DNA from: Arcobacter roscoffensis
GTDB lineage: Bacteria > Campylobacterota > Campylobacteria > Campylobacterales > Arcobacteraceae
NCBI RefSeq assembly: GCF_024267655.1
Contig: NZ_CP100595.1
Span: 1,302,001 to 1,366,000, forward strand
Direction of reading: 5' to 3'
DNA length: 64,000 bases
Part shown: in pieces, positions 37,528-39,695 of the stretch
Layout: each line of letters opens with the position of its first letter
How positions within the stretch are numbered: the stretch's first letter is position 1
The notes under the pieces: model-generated
Seen by the model: only the letters and a program-made list of their open reading frames with translations
The model's database searches: none
Told to the model about the DNA's origin: nothing
Position numbers and translations under genes: made by a program

Positions 37528-38076
37528 ATGACAGTAAGTACTAGTAATAATTTAAATCATTTGATTCAAAAAGTTCAATCATCTAATAAAACACAAAATA
37601 CAAAAGAAAGTTCTATGATTCAAAAAGAAGAGCTTGGAGAAAAAAAAGATTCTGAAAGATATAATTTTTTAACTGCAAATGGCTGGTTGGATAATTCAAT
37701 AATTATGAAAGATGAGAAATTGAATGCAGAATTTAGAAATTATGTAGATAATATGAGCGAAGATGAATATTTCTCTTTCCTCACTTCAATGGCTTGTGAT
37801 TTTGCACCAGGATTTGGTAATAATATAAATAATTTGCCTCTTAACGAAGCTCCTTCAAAAAAAGACCCAAACATTGAATTTTCTTCATTATCAAGTATAA
37901 AAAAATACTTTACAGATGAATATAATGAAGTATTAACAAATACTGCTAAATGGGGTGGAGATACAACAAATGCGATAAATACAATAACTAATCTTTTAGA
38001 TTTTTTTAAAAATTATGAATCAAAAGAACAAGAAAAACAATACATTACTTTAGGACAAGGTAGTATAAATGTCTAA
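37528..38076 (+). CDS. Unknown protein, C-terminal module shared with the next gene
   Basis: A 182-residue soluble protein with no signal peptide. A polar, low-complexity N-terminus (about 1-45) precedes a module (about 46-182) with RYNFLTANGWLDNS, WGGDTTNAINTI and FFKNYESKEQEKQYITLGQG. The same module ends the product of 38132-38890. AAAGG lies about 8 bases ahead of the ATG. The preceding gap (37371-37527) holds very A/T-rich palindromic sequence around TATTAATATATAATATTA. No function is recognised. Confidence 0.65.
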   Translation: MTVSTSNNLNHLIQKVQSSNKTQNTKESSMIQKEELGEKKDSERYNFLTANGWLDNSIIMKDEKLNAEFRNYVDNMSEDEYFSFLTSMACDFAPGFGNNINNLPLNEAPSKKDPNIEFSSLSSIKKYFTDEYNEVLTNTAKWGGDTTNAINTITNLLDFFKNYESKEQEKQYITLGQGSINV

Positions 38077-38250
38077 AAGTATTTTAAAATATATTATGTT
38101 TACAAAATAAAACTAAAAAAAGGAGTTTATAATGCAAGTAACAAATAATACATATACAAACTATTATAATCAAACAAATAGCACAACAAAAGTAGAAAAA
38201 ACAGAAAAAAGCTCTTTTGCTTCAATGTTGACAGGTTCACAAAAAGAAGA
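38002..38250 (+). repeat. Direct repeat, copy 1 (249 bp)
   Basis: It spans the 3' end of gene 37528, the whole intergenic region with its ribosome site and the first about 40 codons of gene 38132. It is repeated at 38816-39064 with an exact 814-bp offset, no gaps and only about six substitutions. Confidence 0.9.
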
Positions 38251-38890
38251 TGTAGATGAGCAAGGAAGATTTCTAAAGTACATGGATAAGTATAATGCAT
38301 TTGATTCCCTTTCACAAGAAGATAGAAAAGTCTTTAGAGAAATACTAAAAGATGACAAAGTAACAATGGCTGAAATAGATAATCTATCTTATAATCAAGC
38401 AGAAATTAGTCAAGAATCATTTAATTTACCAGCAAAAAAACTAGATAAAGGGAATAGTATCGGAAAAGAAAGATATGATGCTTTAGCAATTAATGGCTGG
38501 TTTAAGAATTCTGCTTTTGAAAAAGATGAAAATTTAAAGGAAGAGTTTAAAAGTTATTTGGGAGAAATGTCACAAAGAAGTTTTTCAATGACTTTGTTTT
38601 CTATGATTAGAAGTTTTACTCCTGGAATGGTTGAAAATAATGACTTACTTCCTTTACATTTAGCACCAAAACATAAGGATGCATCGATTGAACTTTCTTC
38701 TGTTTCAAGTATAACTAATTACTTTCAGGATAATTATAACTCAATAGTTGAAAATGTAAATAAATGGGGTGGAGATGCAACAGAGGCACTTAAAAATGTA
38801 TCAGGATTAATTAACTTTTTTAAAAATTATGAATCAAAAGAACAAGAAAAACAATATATTACTTTAGGACAAGGTAGTAGAAATGTCTAA
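38132..38890 (+). CDS. Unknown mosaic protein combining modules of both neighbours
   Basis: A 252-residue protein. Residues 1-92 (MQVTNNTYTNYYNQTN..., LTGSQ, DSLSQEDRKVFREILKDDK) match the start of the protein at 38946; residues about 108-252 (RYDALAINGWFKNS, WGGDATEAL, NYESKEQEKQYITLGQG) match the end of the protein at 37528. It therefore looks like a recombinant of the two. The Asn/Thr/Ser-rich, probably disordered N-terminus would fit an export signal of the flagellar/type III kind, but this is speculative. A strong AAAAGGAG ribosome site lies ahead of the ATG. Confidence 0.7.
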   Translation: MQVTNNTYTNYYNQTNSTTKVEKTEKSSFASMLTGSQKEDVDEQGRFLKYMDKYNAFDSLSQEDRKVFREILKDDKVTMAEIDNLSYNQAEISQESFNLPAKKLDKGNSIGKERYDALAINGWFKNSAFEKDENLKEEFKSYLGEMSQRSFSMTLFSMIRSFTPGMVENNDLLPLHLAPKHKDASIELSSVSSITNYFQDNYNSIVENVNKWGGDATEALKNVSGLINFFKNYESKEQEKQYITLGQGSRNV

Positions 38891-39064
38891 AAGTATTTTA
38901 AAATATATTATGTTTACAAAATAAAACTAAAAAAAGGAGTTTATTATGCAAGTAACAAATAATACATATACAAACTATTATAATCAAACAAATAACACAA
39001 CAAAAGTAGAAAAAACAGAAGAAAGCTCTTTTGCTTCAATGTTGACAGGTTCACAAGAAGAAGA
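38816..39064 (+). repeat. Direct repeat, copy 2 (249 bp)
   Basis: The second copy of 38002-38250 covers the end of gene 38132, the intergenic region and the start of gene 38946. Near-identity across non-coding as well as coding bases points to recent duplication or gene conversion. Confidence 0.9.
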
Positions 39065-39695
39065 GGAAGTTGGTAGGTATGTAAAATATATGGATCAATT
39101 TAATTATTTTGATTCTTTATCAGAAGAAGATAGAAAAGTTTTTAGAGAAATACTAAAAGATGATAAGATAACAATGGCTGAGATGGATAGTTTGAGTTAT
39201 GAGCAAGCAGTAAGATTTGAGAAAGTAGCTTTTCCTCAAGGAAATTTTTCTAAAGAACAACTTAACAATACTCCTATTGTAAACATGCCAAATCAAGCAG
39301 TTCACATGCTCTCTGCCACAAAAAGAACAAATGATAAAACTTTTAACGAAGCTTTATATAGAACAGCAAGAGAAATAGATGACGACTCATACAGAAGGAC
39401 TATTTTTAGAGAAGTAAAAACAAATGTAACACAAGTACATTTTGGAGACCCTTTAGTTGAAACATTTAATGTAATAGCATATGAAAATGCAAAAAATCTT
39501 TGGAAAGAAGATATTGATAAGATGAATATAAACTTTGATAAATTCTTGACAGATGTAATTACTTTACATGAAAAAGCACTAGTAAATCCTAAAACACATC
39601 CTGCGGTTATAGACCAACATCAAGAAAAACTTGATGGATATAATATAATTTTAAAACATTATACTGACATAAAAAAAGAATCAATTTATGCTTGA
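38946..39695 (+). CDS. Unknown protein, N-terminal module shared with the previous gene
   Basis: A 249-residue protein. Residues 1-90 share the MQVTNNTYTNYYNQTN...SFASMLTGSQ and DSLSEEDRKVFREILKDDKITMAEMDSLSYEQA module with the gene at 38132. The remainder (about 95-249) is different, helical and charged (RTAREIDDDSYRRTIFREVK, EKALVNPKTHPAVIDQHQEKL). There is no signal peptide, membrane segment or recognised family. The ribosome site sits in the duplicated intergenic repeat, so all three genes probably form one transcription unit with repeated signals. Confidence 0.7.
   Translation: MQVTNNTYTNYYNQTNNTTKVEKTEESSFASMLTGSQEEEEVGRYVKYMDQFNYFDSLSEEDRKVFREILKDDKITMAEMDSLSYEQAVRFEKVAFPQGNFSKEQLNNTPIVNMPNQAVHMLSATKRTNDKTFNEALYRTAREIDDDSYRRTIFREVKTNVTQVHFGDPLVETFNVIAYENAKNLWKEDIDKMNINFDKFLTDVITLHEKALVNPKTHPAVIDQHQEKLDGYNIILKHYTDIKKESIYA

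What the first reader, a model, noticed from the sequence alone, without database searches (positions are those of the whole stretch)
37528..39695. Three adjacent mosaic paralogues with swapped modules
The middle gene has the N-terminal module of the third gene and the C-terminal module of the first. A 249-bp direct repeat (offset exactly 814 bp, about six substitutions, no gaps) includes the intergenic DNA, which marks recent duplication or ongoing gene conversion. The N-terminal module is Asn/Thr/Ser-rich and disorder-prone, as in some secreted proteins. A set of small proteins diversifying by module exchange inside a hydrogenase locus is unexplained.
Basis: partly seen in the sequence, partly recalled or inferred. 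Interest (0 to 1): 0.6.

Follow-up and report, generated by a model that had tools for sequence, protein, structure and literature searches.

The report
Swappable proteins behind flagellar-type leader
Three neighbouring bacterial genes belong to an unnamed family whose members share a short front end that looks like a flagellar export tag, joined to exchangeable bodies, and the genome keeps the front ends alike by copying them between genes while the bodies drift apart.

Summary
Gene 2 (38132-38890) has the N-terminal part of gene 3 and the C-terminal part of gene 1. A 249-bp repeat at offset 814 carries six mismatches and no gaps. Synonymous divergence is about 0.9 on both sides of the repeat, 0/24 in the shared leader, and 54/55 intergenic bases match. 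The simplest history is one old tandem duplication of about 0.8 kb that made the chimeric middle gene, then recent gene conversion of the centre.

The hydrogenase setting looks incidental. The family has no accepted Pfam or NCBIfam match and was found in 30 of 104 genomes of the same family (Arcobacter-like), at many unrelated loci, mixing a leader, a short helical stretch and several bodies. Leader and body trees conflict elsewhere too.

The leader (I/V/L at residue 3, polar spacer, lone FxxxL/M/V near residue 29) matches the layout of the flagellar early-subunit export signal and of this genome's own FlgD: 43 of 66 members against 6 of 483 other ORFs. All 30 carriers have FliP. Flagellar export is therefore the likely route, but it is inferred, gene 1 lacks the F motif, and what the bodies do is unknown.

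The parts
37528..38076 (+). gene 1 (182 aa): degenerate leader plus body A; leader has V3 but no FxxxPhi
38132..38890 (+). gene 2 (252 aa): leader S + helical stretch D + body A; chimeric gene
38946..39695 (+). gene 3 (249 aa): leader S + helical stretch D + body B; ends ...ESIYA
38132..38242 (+). leader S of gene 2 (aa 1-37): V3, polar spacer, F29-ASM-L33
38946..39056 (+). leader S of gene 3 (aa 1-37), 0 of 24 synonymous sites different from gene 2
38261..38404 (+). stretch D of gene 2 (about aa 44-91); dS 0.87 to gene 3 (computed over aa 38-91)
39069..39209 (+). stretch D of gene 3 (about aa 42-88)
37654..38073 (+). body A of gene 1 (aa 43-182)
38468..38887 (+). body A of gene 2 (aa 113-252); predicted helical bundle
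39210..39692 (+). body B of gene 3 (aa 89-249)
38002..38250 (+). homogenised tract, copy 1 (6 mismatches to copy 2)
38816..39064 (+). homogenised tract, copy 2
38405..38467 (+). interval holding the inferred novel joint of the tandem duplication (end of D-type homology to start of A-type homology)
   Evidence: inferred (D2 ends 38405, D3 copy 2 starts 38468)

Best explanation
The three genes are members of an Arcobacteraceae-type family of small proteins built as an export leader (S) plus exchangeable mainly helical bodies (D, A, B and others). Shown: the modular build, its spread, one shared leader layout, and gene conversion that homogenises leaders and adjoining DNA while bodies stay diverged. 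Inferred from that: an ancestral pair, gene 1 (body A) and gene 3 (S-D-B), underwent a tandem duplication of about 0.8 kb whose new joint fused S-D to body A and made gene 2; later conversion over about 250 bp overwrote the centre of the repeat. Inferred with less certainty: the leader is a signal for the flagellar type III export gate (hydrophobic residue at position 3, flexible polar spacer of about 25 residues, FxxxPhi gate-recognition-like motif), so that any body placed behind it leaves the cell through the flagellar apparatus. Conversion would then keep a working leader on all copies. The bodies would act outside the cell or on the flagellum; which of these is not known.
For: Module structure and copies in the same genome. 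Family in 28 of 104 genomes with the B profile and 7 of 104 with the A profile, union 30. Fusions A+B (L043), A+another module (L048, L049), B+that module (L053, L054). dS 0.88 in body A and 0.87 in D, against 2/14.1 in the A tail, 0/24 in S and 54/55 intergenic bases. Bodies A of genes 1 and 2 are sisters, support 0.945. Same end-homogenised pattern in L011, L044 and L115; leader and body trees conflict. Leader layout in 43 of 66 members against 6 of 483 other ORFs. Gene 2 and gene 3 are the only 2 of 48 window ORFs that pass. Own FlgD has V3 and F33LKLM37 after a polar spacer. Published signal: FlgD 2SIAV5 and 36FLTLL40, spacer at least 19 residues and best near 24 or more (PMC8983047, passages). 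All 30 carriers have FliP, one-sided p = 0.019 without phylogenetic correction. Members next to fliP in G045 and near fliS in G049. Residues 1-53 predicted disordered apart from a short helix at the motif.
Against: Gene 1 lacks the FxxxPhi motif, and 23 of 66 members miss the strict test; by the loose test 13 of 66 miss. FliP is present in 93 of 104 genomes anyway, so the association is weak. Most loci are not next to flagellar genes. Some members sit next to other partners, a membrane-anchored protein and a signal-peptide protein, which could mean another export route. The tree of D does not place gene 2 next to gene 3 (48 columns, low support), so the duplication history rests on dS and layout. 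The leader rule was set after looking at the family, so its p-value is optimistic. Own FlgD itself has one spacer hydrophobic residue too many for the strict rule (my count). No export data exist.
Confidence: 0.55

Rival explanations
1. Effector-immunity or polymorphic-toxin-like system: constant leader, variable C-terminal killing body, and a co-encoded membrane-anchored partner (T) that protects the producer from the periplasmic side.
For: Constant front and variable body. A T gene with one N-terminal membrane helix starts within -90 to +60 bp of the stop of 10 of 62 members; 9 of these are alike in the alignment, one (L121) is not. A signal-peptide protein is often adjacent too.
Against: 52 of 62 members have no T next to them by that rule, and genes 1-3 have HypF downstream. 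No toxin-type match in Pfam, NCBIfam or PADLOC. Six A copies stand in a row without T in G060.
Confidence: 0.15
2. The leader is not for flagellar export but for another system, or is a docking tail for a cytoplasmic or membrane partner; bodies act in the cell or envelope.
For: T and signal-peptide partners point to the envelope. Many members also share a C-terminal Tyr-Ala end (24 of 66 against 5 of 482) that the flagellar model does not explain.
Against: Close layout match to the FlgD signal and to own FlgD; no carrier without FliP.
Confidence: 0.25
3. Neutral tandem duplication of a dispensable gene; repeat similarity is simply recent duplication with no functional system.
For: Low G+C, patchy distribution (30 of 104), tandem arrays.
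Against: Intact frames in many genomes, conserved blocks in proteins only about 23-64% identical to the window copies, dN below dS in body A and D, and the leader conserved across bodies that profile comparison aligns only in the leader.
Confidence: 0.05

Closest known systems
Flagellar early (rod/hook class) export substrates, e.g. FlgD, FliK
   Same: N-terminal small non-polar residue, flexible polar spacer, FLTLL-like gate recognition motif (PMC8983047, passages); own FlgD shows the same layout
   Different: No Pfam match over a cut-off to FlgD, FliK or any flagellar family in the members tested; bodies differ, multi-copy, not universal
[quoted passage not shown]
   Same: Non-structural cargo of the flagellum in a related group; described so in PMC12445086 (passages)
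   Different: No sequence comparison was run here; Cia/Fed are not known to me as modular with homogenised leaders (recalled)
Terminal reassortment of type III effectors (Stavrinides, Ma and Guttman 2006)
   Same: Secretion leader attached to different C-terminal bodies; chimeras common (seen only as cited in PMC6460904 and PMC7406222, passages)
   Different: That concerns injectisome effectors; here leaders are also kept alike within a genome by conversion, and the likely exporter is the flagellum
DUF4885 proteins (PF16226)
   Same: Neighbour genes of some members with a similar Ser/Asn-rich start (L058, L115)
   Different: Different body; genes 1-3 do not match it

Membership tests
Flagellar early export substrate (works like) | Small non-polar residue near the N-terminus | tested here: met
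   V3 in genes 1, 2, 3; I/V/L at residue 3 is part of the rule met by 43 of 66
Flagellar early export substrate (works like) | Gate recognition motif (FxxxPhi-like) at or beyond about residue 30, spacer at least 19 | tested here: inconclusive
   Genes 2 and 3: F29xxxL33, 25 residues between V3 and F29; gene 1: absent. The form FxxxPhi is recalled; the paper passages give FLTLL
Flagellar early export substrate (works like) | Host has a flagellar export gate | tested here: met
   FliP at C1:1963993-1964571 in own genome; all 30 carriers
Flagellar early export substrate (works like) | Secreted in a gate-dependent way | not testable with these tools
   needs an experiment
FlgD / FliK / other named flagellar family (member) | Match to the Pfam or NCBIfam model | tested here: not met
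   nothing over a cut-off for genes 1-3
Polymorphic toxin / effector-immunity system | Constant delivery part with variable C-terminal part | tested here: met
Polymorphic toxin / effector-immunity system | Recognisable toxin domain | tested here: inconclusive
   none found in Pfam, NCBIfam, PADLOC or by fold; an unknown toxin is not excluded
Polymorphic toxin / effector-immunity system | Adjacent immunity gene | tested here: not met
   window: no such ORF after gene 3; family: 9 of 62 have an alike T gene
Ferritin-like four-helix proteins | Fold match clearly above background | tested here: inconclusive
   best Z 4.9, within background for helical bundles; no Foldseek E <= 0.001
Concerted evolution by gene conversion | Tract of low synonymous divergence between diverged flanks, and leader/body tree conflict | tested here: met

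The most novel reading that the evidence does not exclude
Arcobacter-like bacteria carry a previously unnamed, combinatorial repertoire of proteins sent out through the flagellar export gate: one plug-in leader (and in many members a Tyr-Ala C-terminal end) is maintained by gene conversion between neighbouring copies, so that new bodies, made by tandem duplication and fusion as in gene 2, are exported at once. Some bodies come with a co-encoded membrane-anchored receptor or immunity protein.
Probability: 0.3. Interest if true: 0.75.

Novelty: new variant of a known kind. Interest (0 to 1): 0.52.

Why it matters
If true, it shows terminal reassortment at work on the flagellar rather than the injectisome export machine, and gives a simple sequence rule for finding such cargo. 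It would also offer a natural set of leader-body chimeras in which leader evolution and body evolution can be separated. It makes the question of how much non-flagellar cargo leaves through flagella directly testable in laboratory strains.

Tried and rejected
Hydrogenase link: rejected, relatives lie at unrelated loci. Sequence relation of body A to body B: profile comparison aligns only the leader, probability 4%. Known structures by sequence: none for A; two hits at E 0.45 for B, taken as chance. Fold of body A: no clear match; ferritin-like rows are background. Fold of gene 3: mean pLDDT 38.6 from two rows, not used. PHROGs: weak hits only (E 0.0013-0.0035), not used. NCBIfam over alignment A1: two chance-level single hits. 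Relatives in other families: order sample gave 13 of 398, 12 in the same family and one at E = 0.001; only up to six candidates per genome were scored. G097, which lacks FliP, was hit by gene 2 at E 2.5e-4, but the ORF there looks like a type III pantothenate kinase (name recalled) and neither profile hit it, so it was left out of the 30. The weak A-profile hit G060:C60 (E 2.8e-4) was not followed. Viral contigs: none for gene 3 or the B profile, one for A. Named genomes: the first scan found nothing, the second only Arcobacter sp. SZUA-449. Papers: none found in the held library with Arcobacter + gene conversion + paralog + flagell, with Arcobacteraceae + flagellar + secreted + tandem, or with DUF4885; one search listed one Campylobacter ureolyticus genome paper, and one search listed nothing that looked relevant among 12 of 444 (listing only).

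In the counts, the member L010_1153 was tallied among the 66 and its ORF also appeared among the 6 control hits; at least four of the other five look like further leader-bearing proteins by eye. The 66 comprise 62 profile hits at E <= 0.001 in fetched loci, genes 1-3 and L010_1153; they are not independent, since many are tandem paralogues. Control ORFs are all other ORFs of at least 100 aa or 150 aa in the same loci, some of them probably not genes.

Full report
Observation. The window holds three + strand ORFs at 37528-38076, 38132-38890 and 38946-39695, in a complete single-contig genome of 3,154,193 bases. Older homology extends on both sides, body A at 70% and stretch D at 77%.

Module structure. 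I call the first 37 or so residues S, the next helical stretch D, and the two bodies A and B. Gene 1 is a degenerate leader plus A, gene 2 is S-D-A, gene 3 is S-D-B. None of the three has a Pfam or NCBIfam match over a cut-off. The profiles of A-type and B-type proteins align only in S, at low probability.

History of the three genes. Nei-Gojobori estimates give dS 0.88 for body A (gene 1 against gene 2) and 0.87 for D (gene 2 against gene 3), but 2 of 14.1 sites in the A tail, 0 of 24 in S, and 54 of 55 identical intergenic bases. Equal divergence on both sides and near identity in between fits one tandem duplication of about 0.8 kb, whose joint created gene 2, followed by recent conversion of the middle. 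The contrast is 2/38 against 52/100 synonymous sites, p = 1.2e-7 on rounded site counts. Bodies A of genes 1 and 2 are sisters with support 0.945; the D tree (48 columns) does not resolve gene 2 with gene 3, which is a point against.

Copies in the same genome. There are two more A-type genes (L011), one B-type gene 62% identical to gene 3 (L012), and a weaker leader-bearing protein (L010). Their neighbours do not look like hydrogenase genes.

Spread. In 104 genomes of the same family, the B profile matches 28 and the A profile 7, union 30. In a sample of 398 genomes of the order, 13 match, 12 of them in this family. Some members fuse A to B or to another module, and G060 has six A copies in tandem. 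The only named relative found is the MAG Arcobacter sp. SZUA-449.

Leaders are homogenised elsewhere too. In L011, L044 and L115 synonymous differences are few in the leader (and in some pairs the tail) and more in the middle; in the six-copy array the effect is weak. Across genomes, bodies pair by position (L041e with L044a: body 81%, leader 60%) while leaders pair within a genome (L044a with L044b: leader 100%, body 59%). This is what gene conversion of leaders between old paralogues gives.

What the leader looks like. Most members start M-x-I/V, run through a Ser/Thr/Asn/Gln-rich spacer and carry a lone F-x-x-x-L/M/V near residue 29. A strict form is met by 43 of 66 members and 6 of 483 other ORFs; a loose form by 53 of 66 and 186 of 420. 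In the window only genes 2 and 3 of 48 ORFs pass. Salmonella FlgD uses residues 2-5 (SIAV) and 36-40 (FLTLL), with at least 19 and best near 24 or more residues between, and polar repeat spacers work (PMC8983047, passages seen). This genome's FlgD has V3 and F33LKLM37 after a polar spacer. All 30 carriers have FliP, against 63 of the other 74 (one-sided p = 0.019, relatedness ignored). Members lie beside fliP in G045 and near fliS in G049. These facts make flagellar export the most likely route. They do not prove it: gene 1 fails the motif, and the rule was chosen after seeing the family.

Bodies. The gene 2 model is disordered over residues 1-53 (apart from a short helix at the motif) and uncertain in D; body A is a mostly confident helical bundle without a clear fold match. 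Gene 3 could not be modelled. Ten of 62 members are followed at -90 to +60 bp by a membrane-anchored ORF, nine of them alike; genes 1-3 are not. Twenty-four of 66 members end in Tyr-Ala/Gly/Val, against 5 of 482 other ORFs, four of which have similar leaders by eye. Neither feature is explained.

Verdict. The evolutionary account is well supported; flagellar export is a reasoned inference at a little over even odds; body function is open.

Noticed in passing
L119:3713-6757: Four tandem members in G049, near fliS, all end exactly in EPIYA at the C-terminus; relatives end in EPYYA, EPKYA, ESIYA. EPIYA is named in PMC7406222 as a conserved effector motif (passage); here it is C-terminal and may be only one form of a Tyr-Ala end.
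   Followed up: partly
L135:4842-6195: An A-type gene with its T partner lies in an IMG/VR contig beside genes that look like filamentous-phage Zot and replication proteins (names recalled); probably host DNA next to a prophage.
   Followed up: no
L012:6948-7709, L012:8481-8951: Unnamed partner families: T (one N-terminal membrane helix, similar C-terminal domain) and a small protein with a signal peptide in several relatives; no Pfam match over a cut-off.
   Followed up: partly
L053:6063-7298, L058:7115-7771, L128:7158-7742: A further module (SLYDDIISLLRTGFTVGELK...) occurs alone or fused behind A or B bodies.
   Followed up: no
L113:10201-10527: A 108-aa ORF directly after a FliK-like ORF looks like a free-standing FlhB C-terminal domain (recalled, not tested).
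   Followed up: no
L058:3463-6156, L115:4315-5694: DUF4885 proteins with Ser/Asn-rich starts sit beside members (the second L058 copy judged by eye); no paper in the held library has the term DUF4885.
   Followed up: partly
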